Assembly: GCA_946479075.1 (NCBI GenBank)
Contig: CAMLDT010000043.1
Coordinates: 1-20,045 of the forward strand
Length of the DNA stretch: 20,045 bases
Reading direction: 5' to 3'
DNA from: an uncultured Polaromonas sp.
Lineage (GTDB): Bacteria > Pseudomonadota > Gammaproteobacteria > Burkholderiales > Burkholderiaceae
Shown here: piece by piece, positions 707-20,045 of the stretch
How the letters are laid out: the number at the start of each line of letters is the position of its first letter
How positions within the stretch are numbered: the stretch's first letter is position 1
Made by a program: the position numbers and the translations under genes
Notes under the pieces: model-generated
Database searches by the model: none
What the model was told of the DNA's origin: nothing
The model's input: the letters and a program-made list of their open reading frames with translations, nothing else

Positions 707-1537
707 CTAGCCGCCTGAAACTGAATAGGCCTGCAGGTCGACTGCAGTGATCGCAGCGGCGGAAACGAGCTGATAGTGTTTTTCATCGACCACCTTGACA
801 TCGTCGCCAACCAGGACCAGTTCGAACATTGCAATGCGGTGGTCAGACATGAACTGTGCAGAAACCGCGCGGCAAATCAAATTCTTGAAGGCCTGCTTGC
901 AAAAAGCCATATCTTGCTGGGTTTGCACGACCCCATGTTTATCTGATCCGCCCTTGGCTTGAACCGGCACGACAAACTGCCGGCCGTGGCGGTCAACCCC
1001 CACATAAACCTCATCAATCTCGATTTGCCCAACGCCTTTGACCGTGGTGCGCAAATGGTTCTGGAGGGAAAACGCAGTGATGCCCAGAAAAATATCGACC
1101 AGCCGGTTGTATCTGACCTTGGCGAGCAAGGCTTGTTCGTCACCAAGTGCATAAGCGCCAATGATTTCGGGTGTGGCGTCAGGAATCTTGATTGTCAGCA
1201 ACTCCTCACGGGGCGAAATGCGATTGAGCCTGACCAGACGAAACCGGTATTTGGCCCGCCCGGCGCCTTCAATAATCCATTCTTTTCCCCTGCTTGCCGT
1301 GGAAAGAATACTTGCTGGAAGGTCGTTGCGATAACGGAAGGAATAAATAAGGTCGCCGACATTCTTGGGGAGCTGAATGCCGAGCCCAGTCGCCACACCC
1401 TCAAACTCATCACGTGTGAACTCGAAGGAATCAAGCTTCGGCAAATAATGATTTTCAAATACTTTGGCAATGATCGCGGAATAGCGATTGAGCGCCGGAA
1501 GTGGCGCTGCCCTGGGCTTCTTTTTGGCATCAGACAT
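707..1537 (-). CDS. Probable type II restriction endonuclease (partner of the m5C methyltransferase)
   Basis: 276-residue protein directly downstream of the methyltransferase; its ATG at 1537 overlaps the methyltransferase stop by 8 bases (ATGTCTGA), so translation is probably coupled. An upstream in-frame TTG (1549) is a weaker start. Near residues 173-195 it shows [11 protein letters not shown] followed by VPVQAKGG, which resembles a PD-(D/E)XK nuclease core in the variant with Q-x-K (D175/E176, Q193, K195). I do not recognise a named enzyme and cannot give the recognition site. The call rests on the overlapping methyltransferase plus this core. GC content is lower than in flanking genes, as for its partner, suggesting transfer as a unit. 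Alternative: another nuclease or an accessory R-M protein. Confidence 0.7.
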
Positions 1538-2822
1538 AGGACTCTTCAATCGTTTTGCTTATGCCATCAACAAACGGTTTGCGGATTCGCTGCGCAATCA
1601 CGTTTTTGGCAACACCAAAATGACGGGACGCATGCCACATCTGAAAAGAAAGCAACTGGTCTTCCCCGAGTTGCAACGCGACTCCTGGTTTTACGGGTAC
1701 CACGCCCAGCGCGCTCATGATTCCGGAAGCGACTGCGCGTCCGAGCAAAGGCGGAACGCTGTTTCCAATCTGGCGAAATCCATGCCATTTGGTGGTATGA
1801 AACCTGAACCAGTCTGGATAAGAATGAAGGCGAGCAGCTTCACGGACCGTGATCACTCGCGGCAAAAAAGGGTGAATGGGTCGGGGTGAAGTAAATGCAC
1901 CTCGTGCGCTGTCTGTTCCAGCGCGCAAGGTGTTGCACAAGCCCTCCGGATCAAGCTTTTTGAATCGGCTGACTGGCTCGGTGGCACCGGTGTCAGTGCT
2001 TAAAAATCGCTTCTTCGAAAGCGCTGTGTGTTCCGTCCTGAGGCTGCCGGTCAGCAAGCTGTCATCGTATTTCCGGACGTACCCAAAGTTGGAGGGGTCG
2101 CGAGCCATACCACGCAGGCGCCTTGCATAAACGGACTCTGTGCTCCACCGGATAGCTTTGCAGTCCGAGTCAAGCAGCTCGGAAAACTGGTCCGCATCCG
2201 GCAGGTCCCCGATTGCCTCCCAAACCGTTACTTTCTTTTTGAAAGGTGTGGGGTATGCCGGCAGACGCTGGTCCATCCGGGCACACATCAGAAACAGACG
2301 CCTTCGGTCTTGCGGCACGCCATAGTCTGCCGCATTGAGCACCTGGTAAGGCGACAAGACCTTGTAACCAGCGAGCGAGAGTGCCTCCATCAACTCATCC
2401 AGAAATTTCGCATGCTTGCCCAGCGTCAATCCTTTGACGTTTTCAAATACGCAAAATTTGGGTTGCAACTCCTCGACCAGACGCACATAGTGAAACACGA
2501 GCTGGTTGCGCTGGTCGTCCAGCGCCCGCTTCCCGATCATTGAGAACCCCTGGCACGGCGCACCGCCGAACACGACGTCAATGTCAACGAAATCCAACCC
2601 TGCGCGGCGCCGAATCTCTGCGCCGGTCAGATCCACGACCGAAGCGCAGATGGCTTTCGAATAAGGAAAATTGAACTCGTGGGTTGCACAGTGAATAGGA
2701 TCAATTTCCACAGCAGCAGCAATGTCAAAACCCGCCTGCTCGAATCCTAAAGACAGCCCCCCCGCCCCTGCAAACAAGTCAATGCCGATGGGTCGCTTTT
2801 GGGCGAGGTTGAAGGATGTCAT
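1530..2822 (-). CDS. DNA (cytosine-5-)-methyltransferase, type II R-M
   Basis: Transfers methyl from S-adenosylmethionine to C5 of cytosine in a specific site, protecting host DNA from the partner nuclease. Numbered from the ATG at 2822 (430 residues): motif I IDLFAGAGGLSLGFEQAGF (14-32), motif IV GGAPCQGFS with catalytic Cys90, motif VI ENVKG (127-131), motif VIII QDRRR (171-175), a variable target-recognition region up to about 320, then REAARLHSYPD (327-337) and motif X GNSVPP (353-358). About 60 residues follow motif X, a longer tail than usual. An in-frame ATG at 2855 would add 11 residues; neither start has a clear ribosome site. I chose 2822 because motif I then begins after a normal short lead. 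No Vsr or C-protein gene is seen nearby. GC is lower than in the surroundings. Confidence 0.93.
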   Translation of the reverse strand: MTSFNLAQKRPIGIDLFAGAGGLSLGFEQAGFDIAAAVEIDPIHCATHEFNFPYSKAICASVVDLTGAEIRRRAGLDFVDIDVVFGGAPCQGFSMIGKRALDDQRNQLVFHYVRLVEELQPKFCVFENVKGLTLGKHAKFLDELMEALSLAGYKVLSPYQVLNAADYGVPQDRRRLFLMCARMDQRLPAYPTPFKKKVTVWEAIGDLPDADQFSELLDSDCKAIRWSTESVYARRLRGMARDPSNFGYVRKYDDSLLTGSLRTEHTALSKKRFLSTDTGATEPVSRFKKLDPEGLCNTLRAGTDSARGAFTSPRPIHPFLPRVITVREAARLHSYPDWFRFHTTKWHGFRQIGNSVPPLLGRAVASGIMSALGVVPVKPGVALQLGEDQLLSFQMWHASRHFGVAKNVIAQRIRKPFVDGISKTIEESYV

Positions 2823-3019
2823 GCTGCAAAGTATGTGGTTATTTACAGTGTACATGGCAATTCAGGAACGATGCAGGTCGCAGCAGTTGGGTGCGATGAA
2901 CACCGACACCCTGAAGCCAGCTCAAAGCCTTGAAACTCTGCTTTTAACAAGCTCATCGAGGCCCAATGCGATTTGAATCCTCGCGTGGGTCTGCAGCGTC
3001 CACCCGCGCAAGCGAACAA

Positions 3020-3061: not shown

Positions 3062-4528
3062 TCAGGTCAAACTGACGCGCTGCATGAACAGACGTGTTGC
3101 CAACAATCCCGCAGGTGTCCAGTGCTGGCTGGGTGCCATCGCCTGGACCAGCAGCCTGGCCTGCCCGGCTTCGTCGGCACTGGCGAGTTGCTGATCGAGC
3201 GCCTGCTTGTCCACATCCAGCAGGTCTTCCGCACTCACTGCATCAAAGCTGGACGCCCCGCGGGTGGCTGAAAGCCGGGCCGCCACGCGAAAGCTGGGCC
3301 GGCGTGCAGGCGCTGCTTCACCCGCCGCCTCGGTGTAAGCGCGGCCGTCGTGGCTGGCCTCGCCGCGTATCCAGTCGTGAATGAGCTGCAGCTCATACGG
3401 GCTGAACACACCAAACATCTCGGCACGCGGGCCTTGCAGCAAAGCCCAGAAGCGGCTTTCTGCCACCGGCGCGCCGCGCTTGATCCAGCCGGCTTTTTGC
3501 AAGGCAGCGAGAAACTCCGGAACATCTTCTTCGCGCGCCAGCCAGTCATTGATGTTGCGCCCGGCAACCCGGCAATAGTCAGAATGCGCGCCGTGGCCGG
3601 TGGCACTTTTGCGCGAAAAGATACGCACCACTTCCTGCTCGATATCGAAGCTCTTGATCACATCGGTGCTGCCGGTGCCGGCATTGCTGAGCTGGTAACC
3701 CCGCCGGACCCGGCGCCAGAAGTCATTGGCATCCCCCAGCCGCGGCAGGTTGTCGAAGACGGCCTGCACGGCGCGCCTGGCGTGACCGGTGTCGGCGTTA
3801 TCGACGGTCACATGCAGCGTGAAGTAATACGGGTCCAGCCCCAGCTCATTGAGCTCATAGGCGGTGATCAGCAGATGCAGCGGCAGCTGTTCGTAGCCGA
3901 GGTTAAAACCAATCACCTCCGGCAGATAGTCCTCGGCGGCGCAGGCCAGCGCGAGCTGGATCACGCCCTGGGCATACAGGCCGTCGTCAAGACCATCGAG
4001 TGAATCGAGCCCGTAACGCGCCATCAACGCGCGGTAAATCACCACATGGTTCTTGTCGGCGGCACCGTCGCCAAGCTCCTCCACATAAGTGCGCAGCAGA
4101 TCCGAAAAACGCGGATTGCGCCAGTGCCTGAGCAGGCCGTACAGCCATGCGCCATCCACCAGCTTGGTGGGGGCAACCGCCCGCAGGAAATACAAGGCGT
4201 GGGCGCGGTTGCTGAAGTAGCGGCGCGGGGCGCCAGCCTGGCGCTCTTCCAGATACTGGCTGTAAGCTGCCGTCGCGCGCTGCGCACCCGCATGCATCCA
4301 GGCTTCAAGTTCATCGGGGGTGTCGGGCAGGTCGCAGGGCAGGCGCGCGGCGTCGGCGAGCTGCCCGTCCAGGAACAAAGCGGCCTCGGTGGCCAATTCA
4401 CCCGTGCTGTCCTTATCCAGCAGCCGGCGGTAAAAACGGGCCAGCGTACCGCCAGGAACCTCCAGCGCAGCAGGGCCGGGCGGCGCAGCCGGGGGACGTG
4501 AAAGCCATTCGTTCGCAGAGATATACAT
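3062..4528 (-). CDS. Iron-containing redox enzyme family protein (haem-oxygenase-like diiron oxidase/oxygenase)
   Basis: 488 residues. The central part (about 140-300) carries the signature of the iron-containing redox enzyme / haem-oxygenase-like diiron (HDO) group: GYEQLPLH (211-217), then ELNELGLDPYYFTLHVTV (225-242) and DNADTGH (243-249). Likely metal ligands are E213, H239, D243 or D246, and H249, with E150/E151 and H161 from an earlier helix. Characterised HDO proteins (UndA, BesC, CADD, FlcD) activate O2 on small substrates or amino acids; the substrate here is unknown. The N-terminal 140 and C-terminal 100 residues are not recognised and make it longer than the minimal enzymes. No signal peptide, so cytoplasmic. 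It stands alone: no peptide precursor or biosynthetic partner is adjacent. ATG at 4528 has only a weak ribosome site. Confidence 0.8.
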   Translation of the reverse strand: MYISANEWLSRPPAAPPGPAALEVPGGTLARFYRRLLDKDSTGELATEAALFLDGQLADAARLPCDLPDTPDELEAWMHAGAQRATAAYSQYLEERQAGAPRRYFSNRAHALYFLRAVAPTKLVDGAWLYGLLRHWRNPRFSDLLRTYVEELGDGAADKNHVVIYRALMARYGLDSLDGLDDGLYAQGVIQLALACAAEDYLPEVIGFNLGYEQLPLHLLITAYELNELGLDPYYFTLHVTVDNADTGHARRAVQAVFDNLPRLGDANDFWRRVRRGYQLSNAGTGSTDVIKSFDIEQEVVRIFSRKSATGHGAHSDYCRVAGRNINDWLAREEDVPEFLAALQKAGWIKRGAPVAESRFWALLQGPRAEMFGVFSPYELQLIHDWIRGEASHDGRAYTEAAGEAAPARRPSFRVAARLSATRGASSFDAVSAEDLLDVDKQALDQQLASADEAGQARLLVQAMAPSQHWTPAGLLATRLFMQRVSLT

Positions 4529-7302: not shown

Positions 7303-10300
7303 TCAGCTCGCGGCCCCGCGGCGATCATGCAGCACGCCTTGCAGGGTGCGCAGCAACTCCTCGTTGGTGGTCTGTGCCTTGAGCAGCACCGCGGCGACCC
7401 GTGCGCGCGCCGCCGGCGCTACCTCTGCTGCAGAAAAAACCACCACCGGTGGTGGCAGCGTGGTGGCTTCAATGTCAGTCAGCAAGTCCCAGCCGGAGCC
7501 CTCGCCCAGCGTCAGGTCGAGCAGCACCAAGTCGAAGTGCTGCTGGCGCAGCCGCACGCGCGCCTCGGCCAGCGTGGCCGCAAATTCAAACACGGCAAAG
7601 TCCTGCGCAATGGCGGCCGTCACGCGCTGGAGATCAAGGTCGTCCTCGACATGGAGAATCCGCGGCCTGCTGCCCGCGCCGGCCATCGCGCGCCGCAGGC
7701 TCCGGATCAGCAGGTTTTCGTCAATCGGCTTGTCCAGCCAGTCCGACACTGACAGCGGCTGGTCGTTAAAGCGTATCTGCCCCTCGCCGGCAAGGGCAGA
7801 CACCACCACGATGGGCAAGTCGCGCGTGGCTTCCTGGCGGCGCAGCTGACGGATCAATACCAGCCCGTCGGCGTCGGGCAAACGCAGGTCCAGCGTCATC
7901 GCCGCATACGGCCGCAATGCCAGCCGCGCCTGGGCCTGGGCTGCGTTGTAAGCCAGATCGGCGTCGAAGCCGCCCTTGTCCAGCATCATGTCAATCAGGC
8001 GCGCAATGTCGGGATCGTCCTCGCAAACCAGCACACGCGGCCGCGCCCCTGGCTGCGCACTGCCCGGCCCGGCTTCCGGCGCTGGCAGCCGCGGCGCCTG
8101 GCTGTCCAGGGCAGCTTCTTTCCATTCGGGAAGCTCGAAGAAAAAGGTACTGCCCGCACCGATGCTGGTGTCAAAACCGATGCTGCCGCCCAGCCGCTCG
8201 ACCAGGGCGCGCGCAATGCTCAAGCCCAGCCCGGTCCCGCCCCTGGCGCGCGTGTCCGAGGCGTCGGCCTGCGAAAACTTCTGGAAGATGCGATGGCGGA
8301 ACGGCTCGGGGATGCCCGGGCCCTGGTCACGCACCTCGACCCGCAGGCGCGGACCCTTGCGCAGCACACAAACGTCCACCGGTTTGTCGGGTGGCGAGAA
8401 CTTCATGGCATTGGACAGGAGGTTGGTGACAACCTGCACCAGGCGGTCGCTGTCCACCTTGACCATCAGCCGGCCCTCGGGGAGCTGCAGACGCAGCTCG
8501 ACCTTGTGGCCGCCGCCATAATTTTCATTGGCGGCCAGCACCTGGGCCAGCAGGGGACCCAGATCAACCGCTTGCGCATCCATGTTCATCTTGCCGGACT
8601 CGATTTTTTCGATGTCCAGGATGTCGTTGATCAGGCGGATCAGCCGTTCGCAGTTGCTGCTGGCAATGGCCACCAGCGATTTCGCGGCGTCCGGCAGCAC
8701 GCCGGCCACCCCGCCCGAGATCAGGCCGAGCGATCCGCGGATGGAGGTCAGCGGCGTGCGGAGCTCGTGGCTGACGGTGGAGACGAACTCGCTTTTCATG
8801 CGGTCAATGCGCTTGAGTTCGGTCACGTCGGTGCCCAGTGAATAAAACCCGATCACCCGGCCCGTGTCCGCGCCATCACCATAACGCGGGAAATAGGTCA
8901 CGACAAAATCGCGCATGTCCCCTTGCGGCGTTTTGCGGTTGCGCTCAAAAGTCACCGGATAACCCGACAACACCTCCTCGACCCAGGGCAGCGCAAGTGC
9001 GTATCCCTCCTCACCCAGCACATCGCGCATCAGCCTGCCATGGATCTGGTCATGCGACAGCCCCAGGCCCTCCGCATAGGCGCGGTTATGGAAGCGAAAG
9101 CGCTGGCTGCTGTCCACATAGGAGATGTACGCGGGCAAGGTATCCGTGATGTCGCGCAGCTGCGACTCGCTCGCCCGCAGTGCATCCTGGACCTGGCGCA
9201 TCGCCGTGGTATCGCGGCCGGTGCCGTGGTAACCCGTGAAACGGCCGGTCTCATCGAAGATCGGCACACCGCTGATGCTTTCATAATGCAGCGCCCCGTG
9301 GATATCCTGCCGCACGATCTCAAAATCGCGGAACACCTCATGCCGCTCCAGCTGCGCGCGGTGGTCGTCCCAGCCGCCGGGCGCCATCACCACATCGGTG
9401 AGCTCCCAGCGCGTCTTGCCGACGATGTTGTTGTCCACACGCTGGCCCATGTCGGTGGTTTTCCCGGAGATTTGCACAAAGCGGAAGTGTTCGTCCTGCT
9501 CCCAGAACCAGTCCGACGCCAGCTCGGTCAACGCGCGGAAACGCTCCTCGCTTTCACGCAGCACCGCTTCGGCGTTCCTGCGCTCCGTGATGTCCTGCAC
9601 CTGTGAGATGAACATCAGCGGGCGGCGGTCCGTGTCGCGCACCAGCGAACAGCTCAGGTGCGCCCAGACAATGCGGCCGCTCTTGTGGAAATAACGCTTT
9701 TCCCATTGATAGGTCTCGATTTCGCCGGCCAGCGCGCGCTTGCGCTGGGCCACGTCGTACTCGACGTCATCGGGATGGGTCACGTCGTGGATGGTGCGGG
9801 CCAGCATCTCGGCCTCGGAATAACCGAGCATCTGGCAAAAAGCGCTGTTGACACGCAAGCGGCGCGAATCCACCCCAATCAGCGCCATGCCGATGGCCGA
9901 GTGTTCAAAGGCGTTGCTGAATTGCTGCTCGCTGAGGCTGAAGGCGTCGTTGTCGCTGCTGGCTGTACCGCCGCCCGTGCCCGGAACCAGCAGGCTGCCG
10001 CGTGACATGCGCGCCAGTGCAAAACCCGGCTCCTCGGCCTGGTCGGCCTGCACCTGCTCACTGCCCAGCGTGAAATAAAAGGTGCTGCCCTTTCCCAGCG
10101 CAGACTGGGCCCAGATGCGGCCTCCATGGCGGGTGATGATGCGTTTGACCGTCGCCAGGCCAATGCCGCTGCCCGAGAACTCCTCGGGCGAATGCAGGCG
10201 CTGGAAGGTGCCAAACAATTTGTCCACGTAGGCCATGTCGAAACCGGCGCCGTTGTCGCGGACGAAATATACCGGCTGCTGGTCCGTGCCGGTCTCGGTG

Positions 10301-12468
10301 CCGACGCTGATCTCGGCCCTGGGAGTCTTGGACGTGAATTTCCAGGCGTTGGAGATCAGGTTTTCCAGCACCTGTCGCAGCAGCGCGGTGTCCGCGCGCA
10401 CCACCAGCCCCGGCTCGACATGCACGTGCACCTGGCGCCCGGCATCGCGCTCGGCATGCAGCCGCAGCAGCTGGCTGGCCTCGGCGCTGAGGTCCATGGC
10501 CGCCCAGCGCAGGCTGGTGCGCGAGAGTTGCGCCAGCAAGAGCAAGCCATCGGTCAGCTCGCCCATGCGCTGCACGCCGGCGCGTATGCGCACCAGGTAA
10601 TGATCGGCCTTGTCGCCGATGCTCGCGGGCAGTGCCTTCTGCAGCAAGGCGCTGAAGCCATCGATGGAACTCAGCGGTGACCGCAGGTCGTGCGCCACCG
10701 AATAGGAAAACGCTTCCAGCTCCCGGTTGGCGGCTTCAAGCTGGGCGGTGCGGCGCAGCACCCGGTTTTCCAGATCCACATTGAGCCGGACGATTTCCAT
10801 CTCGTCGCGCTTGCGCTTGCTGATGTCGGTGATCGTCGTGACAAATCCGCTCGGCTCCGGGCCGGCGTTTTCAAACAGCGGCTGGATGTTGATCTGTACC
10901 CACAGGGTCTGGCCGTCCGGCTTGCGGTAACAGATCACCTTGTCGTTCTGGGGCTGACCGGTACGCAGGGCCACCACGCTGGGAAGCTCGTCGGCCGGCA
11001 TCAGGGCGCCATCTTCACGCAGCACCTGCCATTCGGGCGCCATGATGGTCTGCCCCCGGATTTCGGCCAGCGTCTTGCCAAGAATGCGTTCCGCGCTGGC
11101 ATTGCAGCCGATGATCTGCCCGCCGGCATCGCGCAGCACCAGGCCCTCCGCCAGTGTGGCGACCACCGCCCGGAAACGCGCCTCACTGGCGCGCAGGGCT
11201 TCCTCGGTGAGCTTGCGCGCGGTGATGTCGGAGCCGACGCCGCGGTACCCGGCAAAACGCCCCCCGGCATGAAAGAAGGGTTCGCCGCTGATGCAGAGCA
11301 CGCTGACCCGTCCATCCGCATCGAAGCGCTGGTACTCGAAGTCGCGGAACACCTCGTGGCGCTCCAGTGTGGCCTTGTGGTCGGCCCAGAGCTGCTGCTG
11401 GGCCCGGCCCGGGTCCATTTCCCAGCGAGCCTTGCCGATGAAGCCGCCTATCCACTGCCGTTCTTTCTCGGTCTCCCCACCCGACAGGACGGTCAGCCGG
11501 AACTGCTCATCGGTTTCCCAATACCAGTCGGAGGACAGTTGCGTCAGGCTGCGGAACTGCAGTTCGCTCTGGCGCAGGCGGGCTTCAGCCGCCTTGCGCT
11601 CGGTGATGTCTTCGGCGGTGATCAGCAGGTGGCTGACCTTCCCGCTGGCATCCCGCAAGGCAATCTTGCGCATGTGGACGTGGATCGCACCGCGATGCCG
11701 GGTGACAGTTCGACGGTCCGGAAAGTCCTCGGCCACCCCCGTGCGGACCAGTTCCAGATCGGCGGCGTACATGCGGTCGGCATCCTCGGCAGGCCACAAG
11801 TCATGCACGGTGCGGCCCAGGGCTTCCTCACGCGCCACCCCGTAGAGTTCTTCGGCGGCCTTGTTCCATATCAGCACCGGCATCCCCGCCTGCGCGGATT
11901 TCAGGTGCAACGCAATCGGGATGTTGTCCACGATGGCATTGAGCAACTTGAACGTGTCGCGGCTGGCCTCGTCAGCGCGCCTGACCTCGCTGATGTCGCG
12001 CGACGTCCCGCGGTAACCCGCAAAGCGGTTCTCGCTGTCGTACACCGGCACACCGCTGACAGAAAACCAGGAGAGCGTTCCGTCGGCGCGTGTGCGCATG
12101 TACTCGAAGTCGCGGAAGGGCTTGCGCGCGTCAAGCCCGGCGCGGTGGACCTCCCAGGAGCTGCTCAGCGGCACCAGGCCCGGCAGCTCCCACGGACGCT
12201 GGCCGATGGCGCTGTGGTGTTGCTCCCGGCTGAAGCTGCTGTGATCCAGCGTCACGCCGAACTCGGTAAAACGGTAGTCCGCGTCCTGCTCCCAGTACCA
12301 GTCACCGGAAATGTCGGCCAGGCTGCGCAGCGCATTGCCCTTGAGTGTGCTCAGTGCAAAATCGCGTTCCGCCAGTTCGCGCCTGAGGGCGTCATTGGCG
12401 CGCCCCAATTGCAGCGCCTCGGCCTGCAGGCGGCGGATTTCCTCCTGCAAATCCCGGTCGGGTGTCAA
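7303..12468 (-). CDS. Giant cytosolic hybrid histidine kinase: PAS repeats, two kinase cores, two receiver domains
   Basis: Start: TTG at 12468 behind GGAGG with 5-base spacing; the frame is open to a TTG at 12522 with no ribosome site, and residue numbers here count from that longer form (1739). Order: coiled coil 24-60; PAS about 66-180, 190-310, 326-436 and 445-570; kinase core 1 with VAHDLRSP (H611), N box NLISNAWKF and DNGAGF/SGSGIGLA (715-820); PAS about 865-980, 1000-1108 and 1118-1235; kinase core 2 with VSHELRTP (H1252), NLLSNAMKF, DQGPGI, GGTGLGLS (up to 1463); receiver 1 (D1545, K1598); receiver 2 (D1669, K1715). No membrane segment, so a soluble sensor; PAS domains may bind haem, flavin or small ligands. 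Usual hybrid kinases have one core. No dedicated response regulator gene is adjacent. Ligand and output are unknown. Confidence 0.9.
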   Translation of the reverse strand: MTPDRDLQEEIRRLQAEALQLGRANDALRRELAERDFALSTLKGNALRSLADISGDWYWEQDADYRFTEFGVTLDHSSFSREQHHSAIGQRPWELPGLVPLSSSWEVHRAGLDARKPFRDFEYMRTRADGTLSWFSVSGVPVYDSENRFAGYRGTSRDISEVRRADEASRDTFKLLNAIVDNIPIALHLKSAQAGMPVLIWNKAAEELYGVAREEALGRTVHDLWPAEDADRMYAADLELVRTGVAEDFPDRRTVTRHRGAIHVHMRKIALRDASGKVSHLLITAEDITERKAAEARLRQSELQFRSLTQLSSDWYWETDEQFRLTVLSGGETEKERQWIGGFIGKARWEMDPGRAQQQLWADHKATLERHEVFRDFEYQRFDADGRVSVLCISGEPFFHAGGRFAGYRGVGSDITARKLTEEALRASEARFRAVVATLAEGLVLRDAGGQIIGCNASAERILGKTLAEIRGQTIMAPEWQVLREDGALMPADELPSVVALRTGQPQNDKVICYRKPDGQTLWVQINIQPLFENAGPEPSGFVTTITDISKRKRDEMEIVRLNVDLENRVLRRTAQLEAANRELEAFSYSVAHDLRSPLSSIDGFSALLQKALPASIGDKADHYLVRIRAGVQRMGELTDGLLLLAQLSRTSLRWAAMDLSAEASQLLRLHAERDAGRQVHVHVEPGLVVRADTALLRQVLENLISNAWKFTSKTPRAEISVGTETGTDQQPVYFVRDNGAGFDMAYVDKLFGTFQRLHSPEEFSGSGIGLATVKRIITRHGGRIWAQSALGKGSTFYFTLGSEQVQADQAEEPGFALARMSRGSLLVPGTGGGTASSDNDAFSLSEQQFSNAFEHSAIGMALIGVDSRRLRVNSAFCQMLGYSEAEMLARTIHDVTHPDDVEYDVAQRKRALAGEIETYQWEKRYFHKSGRIVWAHLSCSLVRDTDRRPLMFISQVQDITERRNAEAVLRESEERFRALTELASDWFWEQDEHFRFVQISGKTTDMGQRVDNNIVGKTRWELTDVVMAPGGWDDHRAQLERHEVFRDFEIVRQDIHGALHYESISGVPIFDETGRFTGYHGTGRDTTAMRQVQDALRASESQLRDITDTLPAYISYVDSSQRFRFHNRAYAEGLGLSHDQIHGRLMRDVLGEEGYALALPWVEEVLSGYPVTFERNRKTPQGDMRDFVVTYFPRYGDGADTGRVIGFYSLGTDVTELKRIDRMKSEFVSTVSHELRTPLTSIRGSLGLISGGVAGVLPDAAKSLVAIASSNCERLIRLINDILDIEKIESGKMNMDAQAVDLGPLLAQVLAANENYGGGHKVELRLQLPEGRLMVKVDSDRLVQVVTNLLSNAMKFSPPDKPVDVCVLRKGPRLRVEVRDQGPGIPEPFRHRIFQKFSQADASDTRARGGTGLGLSIARALVERLGGSIGFDTSIGAGSTFFFELPEWKEAALDSQAPRLPAPEAGPGSAQPGARPRVLVCEDDPDIARLIDMMLDKGGFDADLAYNAAQAQARLALRPYAAMTLDLRLPDADGLVLIRQLRRQEATRDLPIVVVSALAGEGQIRFNDQPLSVSDWLDKPIDENLLIRSLRRAMAGAGSRPRILHVEDDLDLQRVTAAIAQDFAVFEFAATLAEARVRLRQQHFDLVLLDLTLGEGSGWDLLTDIEATTLPPPVVVFSAAEVAPAARARVAAVLLKAQTTNEELLRTLQGVLHDRRGAAS

Positions 12469-12530
12469 GGCTGCCTCCGCCGCGTGCGAGACGCACCCGC
12501 TGCGGCGCCAGCCGCTGCGCAAGCAGGAGG

Positions 12531-12549
12531 GGTGAAATGGCCATTCACC
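12531..12549. promoter_or_regulatory. Near-palindrome upstream of the giant kinase gene
   Basis: GGTGAAATGGCCATTCACC: arms GGTGAA and TTCACC around a centre containing the perfect 10-base palindrome AATGGCCATT. It lies about 63 bases upstream of the TTG at 12468. A dimeric repressor or activator site is plausible; no protein is assigned. Confidence 0.3.
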
Positions 12550-12602
12550 ATGGTGTCGCCGTCAATCGTGCCATGCCCGGCCTGTCCTTTGTGGAAGAAA
12601 GG

Positions 12603-12622
12603 GCGCCCGCGTGGGCGGGCGC
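12603..12622 (-). terminator. Probable terminator after creA
   Basis: GCGCCCGC (12603-12610) and GCGGGCGC (12615-12622) form a perfect 8-bp stem with a 4-base loop. On the minus strand it is followed by CCCTTTCTTCC, a broken U tract. It lies about 100 bases past the creA stop and would separate creA from the kinase gene. Confidence 0.45.
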
Positions 12623-12724
12623 ACCGTGTCAAACCGCAGTGTCCGGCAACACCCTCGTGAATGTTATAGGGATAAGTCCTTGTTGGCTGTGGGACGGTGC
12701 AGCCGCGCTGGCAGCCGGTGCACT

Positions 12725-16698: not shown

Positions 16699-17670
16699 TC
16701 AGGCTTCGAATTGGGGGTGCAATTGCCGGATGCGGCTCATGGCCATGCCTGCTGCTGCGGTGCGGGTTTCCACGCCCAGCTTGGCAAACACGCGTTCCAG
16801 GTGCTTTTTGACCGTCATCGGACTGGTGCCCAGGATGTCGCCGATATCGCGGTTGATCTTGCCTTTGACCACCCAGTACAGCACCTCGGCTTCACGGGCG
16901 GTGAGTTTGAAGCTCAGGCTCATCGCCTGGATCACGGTCTCATCCGACTCTTCGCGCATGATGATCAGCCAGTCGTCATCGCCGGTTTGCTGGTGCAGGC
17001 GAAAGGTCAGCCGGCGCGCAGCCGATGCCGCACTTTCGCAGCTGAGGCGCGGTGGCTCGATCTGCCGTTCGGCATCGGCCAGGTTGCGGCGCAGCCAGCT
17101 CAGCACGGCGTCTGGCGTCTGGGGTGCGCTGGTGCCGTAATACTGCGAGAGCAGATCGCGCGCCAGCGGGGTTTGCCACATCAGTTTGCCGTCACTCACC
17201 CGCACCGTGATGGTGGCGTAGCCGAAGGCATCCAGCGCATTGCGCGCCTGGCGCTTCTCACGCGCGCTTTGCAGATGCACACCGATGCGTGCCAGCACTT
17301 CCTTGGGCTTGATCGGTTTGGTCACATAGTCCACGCCGCCGGAATCGAGCGCCGCGACCAGGTATTCGGTTTCGGTCAGGCCGGTCATGAAGATGATGGG
17401 AATATGCGCCGTGCGGGCATCGGCCTTGAGCCGTTTGGCGACCTCGAAGCCGTCCATGCCGGGCATCATGGCGTCGAGCAACACAATGTCGGGCAAAGCC
17501 TGCACAGCGCGCTGCAGCGCCGCCTCGCCGTGCGTGGCGACCAGCACGGTGAAGCCCGACTCGTCCAGCGCATCGTGCAGCACCGACAGGTTGTCGGGCA
17601 CGTCATCGACGATCAGCACCACATCGCTGTTGGCGCGGTCCAGCGTGTGCGCCAGGCTGCGGTCGTTCAT
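16699..17670 (-). CDS. Two-component response regulator, receiver plus LuxR-type DNA-binding domain
   Basis: 323 residues. Receiver domain 16-135: acidic pair D22/D23, phospho-acceptor D66 in DIVLLDAMMPGMDG, T96 in FMTG, K118 in YVTKPI. The middle part (about 150-240) looks like a degenerate PAS-type domain (FGYATITVRVSDGKLMWQTP ... DDDWLIIM). The LuxR/NarL HTH is at 255-310: LTAREAEVLYWVVKGKINRD, then MTVKKHLERVFAKLGVETRT. The longer middle segment is unusual for NarL types (about 210 residues). Its ATG overlaps the kinase stop (ATGA), so the pair is translationally coupled. It probably activates or represses promoters when phosphorylated by the adjacent kinase; a urea or amino-acid uptake target is an inference from the urt gene on the same strand. 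Confidence 0.92.
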   Translation of the reverse strand: MNDRSLAHTLDRANSDVVLIVDDVPDNLSVLHDALDESGFTVLVATHGEAALQRAVQALPDIVLLDAMMPGMDGFEVAKRLKADARTAHIPIIFMTGLTETEYLVAALDSGGVDYVTKPIKPKEVLARIGVHLQSAREKRQARNALDAFGYATITVRVSDGKLMWQTPLARDLLSQYYGTSAPQTPDAVLSWLRRNLADAERQIEPPRLSCESAASAARRLTFRLHQQTGDDDWLIIMREESDETVIQAMSLSFKLTAREAEVLYWVVKGKINRDIGDILGTSPMTVKKHLERVFAKLGVETRTAAAGMAMSRIRQLHPQFEA

Positions 17671-20045
17671 GTCGGCACCTGGCTGAGCTGCTGGCTCATG
17701 GTCTCGAACTGGAACTGGCGCGCCAGGCCGCGCATCTCGGCGGCAAACGCTGCGCTTTGTGGTTGTGACTTTTCGATCTCGTCGAGCGTGTTCATGATGC
17801 CGCGAAAGTAACCGAGGTTGACCACCTCGCGCAAGGCGTCGAGCTGCGCGGCAGGCGGGTACACCAGAGGCAACGCCGCCTGCGCCGGCACGGCCGCGGC
17901 TGGCACGGGTGCTTCCAGCCAGACCAGCTGCAAACGCCGCTCCAGCCAGTCCAGCAATTCGCTGTGGCGCACCGGCTTGAGGATGAAGTCTTCCAGACGG
18001 ATGCCGACATCGTTGTCCAGGCCTTTGTCGAAGGCATTCGCGGAAACAATAGCGAAATGGGCCCCCACGCTGTTCACGTCGTGTAATGCGCGAGGCCTTG
18101 CAGGCCGCCGCTCGCCAGAGGCTTCGCTTCTGTCGCCTGTCCCAACCTGCTCAAGCAGGTTGGGAGCCTCAGGCTCCAGCCCCTCGGGGGCAATGCTTTG
18201 CTGGGGCGGCCCGGCGGCGGGGCGCTGCTCAGCCTGTTCAAGCGCACGCACACGGCGCAGCGTCTCCCAGCCATCGATGCCCGGCATCGCCAGGTCCATC
18301 AGGATCACTTCGGGCCGGTAGCCGGCGGCCAGCAAATCCAGGCAGTCGTGGCCGCTGGCGGCGGTGCGTATCTCGAAGCCCAGTGGCTCCAGCACATTGA
18401 CCAGCAGCTCGCGGTCGGCCTCCTCGTTGTCCACCACCAGCACGCGCCGGCGCGGCCCCGCATAGCCGAGCCGTGTCTTGTGCGCGCGCGAGGACGGCAC
18501 CGGCAGCGCTGCGCCGGGCGCCACACGCACCTCGGGCAAGAACAGCTTGATACGAAACACCGAGCCCACGTCCGGTGTGCTGGCCACCGTGAGTTCGCCA
18601 CCCATCAGGTCGGTCAGCATCTTGGCAATCGTCAGGCCCAGACCCGCGCCGGGTGCGGCCTGGCCCGGCGTCGAGGCGCGCGTAAAGGGCTCGAAGATGC
18701 GTTCGATTTCCTGCGCCGACAAGCCCGGGCCGGTGTCCTCGATCTCGATGCTGGCCATCTCGCGGGCATATTTCAGACGCAGGCTGATGCGGCCTTTCGC
18801 CGTGAACTTGATGGCATTGCCCAGCAGGTTGATCAGGATTTGCCGCACACGTTTTTCGTCGGCGCGCACCACCACCGGCAAGGTGCCTTCGGACTCGAAG
18901 TGAAACTCCAGGCCCTTGGCCTGCGCTTCGAGCTCGAACATGCCGGTGAGTTCGTGCACGAAGTCGGCGAAGTGCATGGGTTTGACATTGAGCGTGAGTT
19001 TGCCGCTTTCGATGCGCGCGATGTCCAGCGTGCCCTCAATCAGCGACAGCAGGTGTTCGCCGCCGCGCTTGATCACCCCGACGGCCTGCTGGCGGTGCGG
19101 TGGAATCGACGTGTCTTCCCCCATCAGCTGCGCATAACCGAGGATGCTGTTGAGCGGCGTGCGCAGCTCGTGGCTGATGGCGCTGATGTAGCGGCTCTTG
19201 GCCTGGTTGGCGAGATCGGCCACACGTTTGGCCTGCTGCAGCGCCTCGTCGGTCTGGCGGTGCGACTCGATTTCCTTCATCAGCAAATGCGTCTGGCGGT
19301 TCGATTCTTCCTGCGCCACCTGCCGGCTCTTGTGGGCCAGCACCAGCCACCAGGCCACCAGCCCGGCGATCACCAGCAACGCCATGTAGGCCTTCAAAAA
19401 ACCCGAACGCAGCGCCGACTCGGACGCGACTTCCAGATCAAGCAAGGCGCGCATCTCCTGGTGGTAGAGCAGGCCAAACACACTGGCCAGCAGCGGCACG
19501 ATCACCAGCATCAGCAGCAGGAAGTGGCCCAGGCCGGTATCCAGATAGGGCCAGATGCGGCGCGGCAGCAACCAGCGCAGGGTGGCCGACCACTGTGACG
19601 ACAGGCTGGCTTGCGGCTTGCACAAATCGCCGCAACGCGCGTCCAGCGTGCAGCACAAGGAGCAGATGTGGCCCTGGTAGGCCGGGCAATGCGCCATGTC
19701 CGGGCCTTCGTAGTCGCGCTCGCAGATCACACAGCGTTTGAGCGCATAAGGCTTGTCCTTGCCCTGGGCATCGGTTTCGGGCGTTTCAGCCTGGCGTGCA
19801 ATGTAGTAGCGCCCCTGGGTCGCCCAGGCGATGAGCGGTGAGGTGACAAAAGCCGTGCCGAGTGCGATCAACGCCGAGAACGCCTGCGCCAGCGGGCCGA
19901 ACAAGCCCAGGTGAGCCGCCACCGACAACACCGACGCCAGCGCCATCGCGCCGACACCGACCGGGTTGATGTCGTAAAGATGCGCGCGCTTGAATTCGAT
20001 GCCTTTGGGCGACAGGCCCAGCGGCTTGTTGATGACCAGGTCGGC
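17667..20045 (-). CDS. Membrane hybrid sensor histidine kinase with transporter-like N-terminus (cut by window edge)
   Basis: The frame stays open to 20045, so the start is outside. Numbered from the Met codon at 19946: the edge and first 50 residues (NKPLGLSPKGIEFKRAHLYD before it, then membrane helices) resemble the last helices of a sodium:solute symporter domain, as in CbrA-like kinases. A Cys-rich module follows (C72, C75, C87, C95, C98, C99, C105, C109), then two membrane helices (about 140-160, 185-204), coiled coil, HisKA (H259 in SHELRTP), HATPase (N374-N377 region NLLGNAIKF, DTGPGLS, GAGLGLT), receiver (D551, K657) and a helical C-terminus (700-755) without an HPt-type His motif. 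The receiver contains an extra Pro/Glu/Arg-rich stretch (about 572-628) encoded by a palindromic repeat. Stop overlaps the response regulator start. Confidence 0.9.
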   Translation of the reverse strand, partial: ADLVINKPLGLSPKGIEFKRAHLYDINPVGVGAMALASVLSVAAHLGLFGPLAQAFSALIALGTAFVTSPLIAWATQGRYYIARQAETPETDAQGKDKPYALKRCVICERDYEGPDMAHCPAYQGHICSLCCTLDARCGDLCKPQASLSSQWSATLRWLLPRRIWPYLDTGLGHFLLLMLVIVPLLASVFGLLYHQEMRALLDLEVASESALRSGFLKAYMALLVIAGLVAWWLVLAHKSRQVAQEESNRQTHLLMKEIESHRQTDEALQQAKRVADLANQAKSRYISAISHELRTPLNSILGYAQLMGEDTSIPPHRQQAVGVIKRGGEHLLSLIEGTLDIARIESGKLTLNVKPMHFADFVHELTGMFELEAQAKGLEFHFESEGTLPVVVRADEKRVRQILINLLGNAIKFTAKGRISLRLKYAREMASIEIEDTGPGLSAQEIERIFEPFTRASTPGQAAPGAGLGLTIAKMLTDLMGGELTVASTPDVGSVFRIKLFLPEVRVAPGAALPVPSSRAHKTRLGYAGPRRRVLVVDNEEADRELLVNVLEPLGFEIRTAASGHDCLDLLAAGYRPEVILMDLAMPGIDGWETLRRVRALEQAEQRPAAGPPQQSIAPEGLEPEAPNLLEQVGTGDRSEASGERRPARPRALHDVNSVGAHFAIVSANAFDKGLDNDVGIRLEDFILKPVRHSELLDWLERRLQLVWLEAPVPAAAVPAQAALPLVYPPAAQLDALREVVNLGYFRGIMNTLDEIEKSQPQSAAFAAEMRGLARQFQFETMSQQLSQVPT
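18065..18235 (-). repeat. Palindromic repeat unit inserted in frame in the kinase receiver domain
   Basis: The segment codes for extra residues between helix 3 (RRVRALEQ) and strand 4 (AIVSANAF) of the receiver. It holds three adjacent inverted repeats: CCCAACCTGCT (18141-18151)/AGCAGGTTGGG (18154-18164), GAGCCT (18165-18170)/AGGCTC (18172-18177), and GCCCC (18179-18183)/GGGGC (18187-18191). Outer borders are estimated from the protein, not from a known element. Confidence 0.6.

What the first reader, a model, noticed from the sequence alone, without database searches (positions are those of the whole stretch)
7303..12468. One polypeptide with two complete histidine kinase cores, each with its own PAS array, plus two receivers
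Seen: two H boxes (VAHDLRSP, H611; VSHELRTP, H1252), two full ATPase domains with N and G boxes, and two receivers each with Asp and Lys (D1545/K1598; D1669/K1715). Family knowledge: hybrid kinases normally have one core. The linker after core 1 (about 821-865) is Gly/Ser/Ala-rich, as expected at a fusion joint. Inference: two sensor kinases fused, giving intramolecular signal integration or two-step control of tandem receivers. There is no adjacent response regulator, so the output is unknown.
Basis: partly seen in the sequence, partly recalled or inferred. Interest (0 to 1): 0.75.

Follow-up and report, generated by a model that had tools for sequence, protein, structure and literature searches.

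The report
Two tethered sensor kinases, one protein
A very large bacterial sensor protein carries two complete kinase engines joined by a loose linker, plus two receiver domains; this rare layout was seen here almost only in Polaromonas bacteria, where the front and rear engines have different evolutionary histories.

Summary
The gene is on the minus strand (7303-12468): seven PAS domains, two complete histidine kinase cores, two C-terminal receivers. Both phospho-histidines and the ATP-binding motifs are kept in 77 of 77 comparable proteins, so it is no artefact and neither core is dead.

The fusion reading is supported. Each half also exists as its own gene, and in two genomes a core-1-type gene overlaps a core-2/receiver gene by 4 nt. 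The last PAS-to-His spacing of each core is invariant (71 of 71), whereas the distance across the linker varies from 41 to 69 residues: two sensor kinases on a loose tether.

Front halves form one clade; rear halves do not (AU p 4.6e-42, in a subset chosen after a quick tree). So the rear kinase was exchanged or split off repeatedly. Several relatives lost core 2 and the receivers while core 1 stayed intact, so core 1 probably has an output of its own.

Two-core kinases are known but rare (TodS, LvrA; 53 proteins in a 2010 census). I rate this a new variant of a known kind. Which receiver each core feeds is inferred, not shown.

The parts
7303..12468 (-). whole gene, two-core hybrid histidine kinase, 1721 aa from TTG 12468 (1739 aa if read from TTG 12522)
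11953..12336 (-). PAS1 (residues 63-190, DWYW type)
11569..11952 (-). PAS2 (191-318)
11185..11568 (-). PAS3 (319-446, DWYW type, 48% identical to PAS6)
10753..11184 (-). PAS4 (447-590); spacing to H611 invariant in 71 of 71
10453..10725 (-). core 1 DHp (600-690) with H611; best solved matches include bacteriophytochromes
10045..10455 (-). core 1 ATPase (690-826): N725, D756/G758/G760, G784/G786/G788
9925..10044 (-). linker between the halves (827-866): variable length, Gly/Ser/Ala/Pro/Gln-rich
9553..9924 (-). PAS5 (867-990)
9169..9555 (-). PAS6 (990-1118, DWFW type)
8803..9171 (-). PAS7 (1118-1240); spacing to H1252 invariant in 71 of 71
8587..8805 (-). core 2 DHp (1240-1312) with H1252; most conserved domain (mean 91% identity to this copy over 69 proteins)
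8113..8586 (-). core 2 ATPase (1313-1470): N1367, N1371, D1399/G1401/G1403, G1429/G1431/G1433
7687..8043 (-). receiver 1 (1494-1612): D1502, D1503, D1545, S1575, K1598; closest solved chain 3grc_A
7318..7671 (-). receiver 2 (1618-1735): E1626, D1627, D1628, D1669, S1697, K1715

Best explanation
It is a sensor without an evident membrane span, made of two complete histidine kinases joined by a flexible tether. Module A is PAS1-4 plus core 1, whose closest solved relatives include bacteriophytochromes. Module B is PAS5-7 plus core 2 (a different kinase type) and two receivers. Shown by sequence: both cores and both receivers keep their key catalytic residues, the last PAS-to-His spacing of each core never varies, and the tether does. 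Inferred: each core autophosphorylates under control of its own PAS array; core 2 drives receivers R1 and R2 in cis; core 1 keeps an output of its own (most likely a diffusible, unlinked single-domain regulator) and is tethered to module B so that the two signals are integrated by proximity and phosphotransfer, not by a continuous signalling helix.
For: Catalytic residues: H611, N725, D756, G758, G760, the G2 glycines, H1252, N1367, N1371, D1399 and D1545 are kept in 77 of 77; D1669 and K1715 in 76 of 77, the other being a gap. Spacing: 51 residues PAS4-H611, 27 PAS7-H1252, 30 PAS5-PAS6 and 30 PAS6-PAS7 in 71 of 71, against 41-69 for core 1-PAS5. Highest 19-residue Kyte-Doolittle mean 1.36, below the usual cut for a membrane helix (cut-off recalled). 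Halves as separate genes: 10 loci with PAS5-PAS7-core 2-R1-R2 alone and 3 with a stand-alone core-1 kinase (L026, L028, L029); core-1/core-2 gene pairs overlapping by 4 nt in L127 and L141. Core 1 without core 2: 33 of 117 core-1 proteins lack the core 2 ATPase (some cut by contig ends), while core-1 catalytic residues are kept in 117 of 117; such ORFs stop inside the contig in 7 of the 87 genus genomes searched. Receivers in trans: 23 of 42 distant core-1 genes have a receiver-only gene within 150 bp downstream, and 17 of 36 single-core module-B genes have one within 14 bp.
Against: No phosphotransfer data exist, and no unlinked partner of core 1 was identified. 19 of the 42 distant core-1 genes have no such neighbour. 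The overlapping gene pairs (L127, L141) also fit the view that core 1 feeds module B. R1 and R2 could take phosphate from core 1 in cis. Proteins that lost core 2 could be decaying and non-functional, although their core 1 stays intact.
Confidence: 0.5

Rival explanations
1. Convergent integrator: both cores phosphorylate the tandem receivers in cis, for example one receiver each, and the pattern of R1-P and R2-P decides the output.
For: Two cores and two intact receivers in one chain; core-1-type and core-2/receiver genes overlapping by 4 nt in L127 and L141; no receiver gene within the sequence held for 7 of 13 two-core loci (L002, L004-L007, L011, L012; L002 and L007 have short upstream flanks).
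Against: Core 1 persists where core 2 and both receivers are gone. Single-core relatives keep both receivers with one core, so two receivers do not need two cores.
Confidence: 0.28
2. TodS-like phosphorelay: core 1 passes phosphate to a receiver, back to H1252 acting as a phosphotransfer site, then onward to R2 or an outside regulator.
For: TodS and Red precedents, where the second transmitter acts as a phosphotransfer domain (PMC3018481 and PMC4321377, passages). P0082 and P0083 keep a core-2 DHp with its His but no ATPase, an HPt-like remnant (L119 has the same length as P0082 and nearly the same end, so it is not an independent case).
Against: No receiver lies between the cores as in TodS and LvrA. 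Core 2 keeps a complete ATPase in the main family.
Confidence: 0.15
3. Core 1 is mainly an allosteric or dimerising input domain for module B, with no receiver of its own.
For: Core 1 is covalently attached to module B; pseudokinase-like regulatory cores are known in other systems (recalled, no call).
Against: Catalytic residues of core 1 intact in 117 of 117; variable tether rather than a continuous helix.
Confidence: 0.07

Closest known systems
TodS / TmoS (Pseudomonas toluene sensors)
   Same: Two autokinase cores and PAS domains in one protein without membrane regions.
   Different: TodS is transmitter-receiver-transmitter with partner TodT (PMC4321377 and PMC3018481 passages). Here there is no receiver between the cores, two at the C-terminus, seven PAS and no adjacent regulator.
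LvrA/LvrB (Leptospira)
   Same: LvrA has two kinase modules; NCBIfam's LvrA model gives the whole protein 333.2 bits, best stretch 591-819 on core 1, far below its cut-off of 1200. The REC-core-1 genes of L127 and L141 have LvrB's layout.
   Different: LvrA is PAS-HK-REC-HK (PMC5863495 passages).
Single-core PAS-HK-REC-REC kinases: L015-L018, L021-L023, L025, L030, L038 (nine titled Polaromonas; L016 is a MAG titled Brevundimonas), P0110, and P0111 (named Rhodoferax)
   Same: Same core 2, R1 and R2 (core-2 DHp 82-89% identical).
   Different: Lack PAS1-4 and core 1.
Stand-alone core-1 kinases L026, L028, L029
   Same: With L127 they sit beside the front cores; that larger group has 97/86 support.
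   Different: No module B; a CHASE sensor in front (Pfam run on L028 only).
3grc_A, solved receiver
   Same: Matches R1 over 1493-1615 at 170 bits; by recall a structural-genomics entry from Polaromonas JS666.
   Different: Isolated domain only.

Membership tests
Hybrid histidine kinase with two transmitters (2T2R class of Williams & Whitworth 2010) | two HisKA+HATPase_c units in one protein | tested here: met
Hybrid histidine kinase with two transmitters (2T2R class of Williams & Whitworth 2010) | two receivers with Asp and Lys | tested here: met
TodS family | receiver between the two cores | tested here: not met
   residues 827-866 are a low-complexity linker followed directly by PAS5
TodS family | adjacent cognate regulator (TodT) | tested here: not met
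   nearest receiver gene 4,177 bp away, overlapping a kinase gene of its own
TodS family | His-Asp-His-Asp phosphorelay | not testable with these tools
   needs biochemistry
LvrA (NF047465) | score above curated cut-off 1200 | tested here: not met
   333.2 bits
Bacteriophytochrome | photosensory PAS-GAF-PHY front end (definition recalled) | tested here: not met
   Pfam lists no GAF or PHY in P0001 at E 0.01; only the kinase cores match these entries

The most novel reading that the evidence does not exclude
A 'chassis' kinase family: the front sensor kinase arose once in Polaromonas and is always kept catalytically intact, while its C-terminal partner kinase is an exchangeable cartridge (replaced by other paralogues, swapped for a distant hybrid kinase, or eroded to a His-containing or His-less DHp stub). 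The tether, rather than a fixed phosphorelay, would then be what is selected.
Probability: 0.4. Interest if true: 0.6.

Novelty: new variant of a known kind. Interest (0 to 1): 0.42.

Why it matters
Why some sensor kinases carry two engines is an open question (the abstract of PMC4321377, as shown in the listing, says the reason for complex kinases is little understood). This family offers natural knock-outs (core 2 lost, receivers lost), a natural swap of core 2 and natural separate-gene versions among close relatives, so the contribution of each core can be tested by comparing existing proteins.

Tried and rejected
Internal duplication of one kinase: rejected. The DHp domains share 26% and the ATPase domains 32% identity and their best solved matches differ, although some bacteriophytochrome entries also match core 2, with lower scores. 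Only PAS1, PAS3 and PAS6 look like shuffled copies (38-48%).

Pseudokinase or frameshift artefact: rejected. For one orthologue (G055) the search counted a TAG inside its match, but the frame read in L088 is open for 1729 aa. Plasmid-borne gene: no match in 72,556 plasmid records at E 1e-100. Rfam and tRNA: nothing in the window. Linked regulator as output: a homologue of the upstream LuxR regulator is seen in 6 of 13 loci (window, L001, L003, L008-L010) at 1.1-4.6 kb, but not in L004-L006, L011 or L012, which have 6 kb of upstream sequence.

Direction of fusion or fission: not resolved. Limits of the trees: one search used 78 front rows (quick), 60 of them (careful; its bootstrap had not fully settled). 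One search used 67 back rows (quick), from which L129 and L130 had been left out although they are not repeats. One search used 41 of the 67 (18 of 24 doubles, 23 of 43 singles), thinned for run time; long rows P0074, P0120, L125 and L147 are among those left out, and it covers DHp2 to R2 only. That subset was picked after the quick tree had shown the doubles to be split, so its p-value is not that of a test set up blind. Spacing: six swapped-core proteins (P0085-P0088, P0091, P0114) were left out of the 77. The first regulator tally (15 of 35) wrongly left out L129 and L130 and counted L135, a repeat of L125; one search puts this right (17 of 36). In the distant set, L039 and L042 are near-copies.

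Papers: seen only as search listings, plus passages of PMC4321377, PMC3018481, PMC4603909, PMC5863495 and PMC8534201. Searches listed no described Polaromonas two-core kinase.

Full report
WHAT IS THERE. The finding is one uninterrupted frame on the minus strand, 12522..7303. The order is PAS1-PAS4, DHp1 (H611), ATPase1, linker, PAS5-PAS7, DHp2 (H1252), ATPase2, receiver 1 (D1545/K1598), receiver 2 (D1669/K1715). No stretch is hydrophobic enough for a clear membrane span (cut-off recalled).

BOTH CORES ARE INTACT. Of 121 proteins (the window's plus the 120 listed of 2539 hits), 77 have core 1, core 2 and receiver 1 by domain-wise BLASTP (this includes the window's protein and its identical database copy). 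The two phospho-histidines, N725, N1367, N1371, the D-x-G-x-G and GxGxG motifs and D1545 are kept in 77 of 77. N721 is N in 71 of 77, K1374 is K in 76, D1502 is D in 73, S1575 is S or T in 75; K1598, D1669 and K1715 are kept in 76 with one gap each.

THE CORES ARE OF DIFFERENT KINDS. Among solved structures, core 1 (588-821) matches a histidine kinase entry (121 bits) and bacteriophytochromes (102 bits) best. Core 2 (1231-1467) matches other sensor kinases best (147-132 bits; among them, by recall, HK853); a few bacteriophytochrome entries also match core 2, at about 80 bits. Receiver 1 matches 3grc_A at 170 bits. Identity between the two cores is 26% (DHp) and 32% (ATPase), so this is a combination of two kinases and not a recent duplication.

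WHERE IT OCCURS. In the scan of 84,980 species genomes (best 80 places kept) the twelve loci in which both cores were seen, L001-L012, are all titled Polaromonas. L012 has a different core 2. Of the 120 protein hits that carry a name, one two-core protein is labelled Haliea (P0025, a partial MAG protein) and others only Pseudomonadota. Of 87 genomes of the genus, 17 have a match over essentially the whole protein and one more (G003, 2112 aa) in pieces; a nineteenth (G032) has the same front with a distant core 2. In an even sample of 100 family genomes, 2 had a match at 1e-200, both genus genomes already counted. The tool scored only a few candidates per genome, so these are minimum counts.

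THE HALVES EXIST SEPARATELY. Ten loci encode PAS5-PAS6-PAS7-core 2-R1-R2 alone (L015-L018, L021-L023, L025, L030, L038; nine titled Polaromonas, L016 Brevundimonas). Others share only PAS7-core 2-R1-R2. Core 1 alone appears in L026, L028 and L029 behind a different front end; the one scanned with Pfam, L028, has a CHASE sensor. In L127 and L141, from two genomes, a 431-aa kinase with a receiver in front of a core-1-type core overlaps a 799-aa core-2 gene by 4 nt. Pfam on L141's 799-aa protein gives PAS, core 2 and three receiver stretches, so it has one receiver more than module B. Their core-2 genes are close kin, but their core-1 cores fall apart in the tree; L141's is flagged as a long branch, so its place is unsure. 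The pairing of the two kinase types may have arisen more than once.

A LOOSE TETHER. Over 71 orthologues (six swapped-core ones excluded) the distances PAS4-H611 (51), PAS5-PAS6 (30), PAS6-PAS7 (30) and PAS7-H1252 (27) never vary. The distance from the end of core 1 to PAS5 runs from 41 to 69, and the linker is 50% Gly/Ser/Ala/Pro/Gln against 31% for the whole protein. Core 2 to receiver 1 also varies, less (31-43), and receiver 1 to receiver 2 is 29-30. Spacings among PAS1-PAS4 were not measured, and the number of PAS domains differs between relatives. A continuous signalling helix from core 1 into module B is therefore unlikely (inference). The residue four after the phospho-His is T in core 2 (71 of 71) and S (53) or T (18) in core 1; by recall the T favours phosphatase activity, so core 2 may be the bifunctional one.

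DIFFERENT HISTORIES. In the front tree, doubles, core-2-less relatives and swapped-core relatives form one clade (49 rows, 100/99); adding the stand-alone core-1 kinases and L127 gives the next clade (53 rows, 97/86). Core-2-less forms need at least three changes there. In the back tree, the doubles are not one clade: holding them together costs 159 log units (AU p 4.6e-42) and starred branches force at least four changes (41 of the 67 rows, chosen after that tree was seen). Either module B was exchanged, or single-core genes split off repeatedly; the data do not say which. P0085-P0088 show that replacement does occur (core 2 DHp 34-36% identical, PAS5-PAS7 59-73%).

NATURAL LOSSES OF CORE 2. 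Of 117 core-1 proteins, 33 lack the core-2 ATPase (some cut by contig ends), and core-1 catalytic residues are kept in all 117. P0082 and P0083 end after a DHp that still has its His; L119, with nearly the same end, is probably the same gene as P0082. P0089, P0092, P0096, P0098, P0101, P0107 and P0109 end in a stub at the DHp place without that His; for P0096 and P0109 the likeness to a DHp is by eye only. P0103 and P0116 end right after PAS7. In assembled contigs such ORFs stop inside the contig in G002, G006, G041, G050, G051, G054 and G062, 7 of 87; for G054 the tool counts one in-frame TGA inside its match, and G002 also has an intact two-core gene. No case of a dead core 1 with a live core 2 was seen, but the search was seeded from this protein.

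SURROUNDINGS. The nearest receiver genes in the window are the LuxR regulator (16699-17670) and hybrid kinase (17667-19946), 4.2 kb from the gene; homologues of that regulator lie upstream in L001, L003, L008, L009 and L010 but not in the other seven loci (L002 and L007 have short flanks). L003, L008 and L010 have a convergent receiver-containing gene 102, 749 and 2292 bp downstream. Of 36 single-core module-B genes, 17 have a receiver-only gene within 14 bp downstream; of 42 distant core-1 genes, 23 have one within 150 bp. None of the 13 two-core loci shows a receiver-only gene on the same strand just downstream.

HOW IT PROBABLY WORKS. Shown: intact catalytic sites, modularity, variable tether, persistence of core 1 without core 2. 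Inferred: core 2 serves R1 and R2 in cis, because the same module occurs alone; core 1 has an outside target, because it persists without receivers and because about half of its distant relatives sit beside a receiver-only gene; the tether co-localises two independently gated kinases. The rivals (both cores feed R1/R2; a TodS-like relay; a regulatory core 1) are not excluded.

KNOWN OR NEW. In a census of 1405 replicons, 53 proteins had two transmitters and 13 of these had two receivers (PMC3018481, passages); myxobacteria have TRTR and TRTTRT proteins (PMC4603909, passages). TodS and LvrA are studied cases with a receiver between the cores (passages). My searches listed no paper on a core-core-receiver-receiver kinase or on this Polaromonas family; the library lacks most subscription journals, and members of this family may be among the 13.

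Noticed in passing
window 707-2855 (-): A type II restriction-modification pair in a lower-GC stretch: cytosine-5 methyltransferase (1530-2855) overlapping a restriction endonuclease gene (707-1549; PADLOC REase_II 414 bits, no Pfam or NCBIfam hit).
   Followed up: partly
window 10690-12660 (+): A 656-aa open frame antisense to the kinase gene; probably a by-product of high GC, not tested further.
   Followed up: no
L127 1044-4735 and L141 3-6198: Gene strings with 4-nt overlaps between a REC-core-1 kinase and a PAS-core-2 gene with receivers; in L141 a HAMP-PAS-GAF kinase gene also overlaps by 4 nt upstream: a likely three-kinase operon.
   Followed up: partly
L003 11214-12266 (-), L008 11939-12970 (-), L010 14616-15605 (-): Convergent gene downstream of the two-core kinase encoding about 200 residues of unknown (in L008 weakly HATPase-like) sequence plus a C-terminal receiver; a possible phosphotransfer partner in some strains.
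   Followed up: partly
L118, L120: Two single-core module-B kinases in tandem followed directly by a single-domain regulator gene.
   Followed up: no
P0003, P0006, P0010, P0024, P0028, P0035, P0039: Longer versions (1846-2112 aa) with extra PAS copies, in P0003, P0006 and P0010 a repeated PAS6-PAS7 pair.
   Followed up: no
window 3062-4528 (-): 488-aa protein with a haem-oxygenase-like domain (Pfam Haem_oxygenas_2, iron-containing redox enzyme).
   Followed up: no
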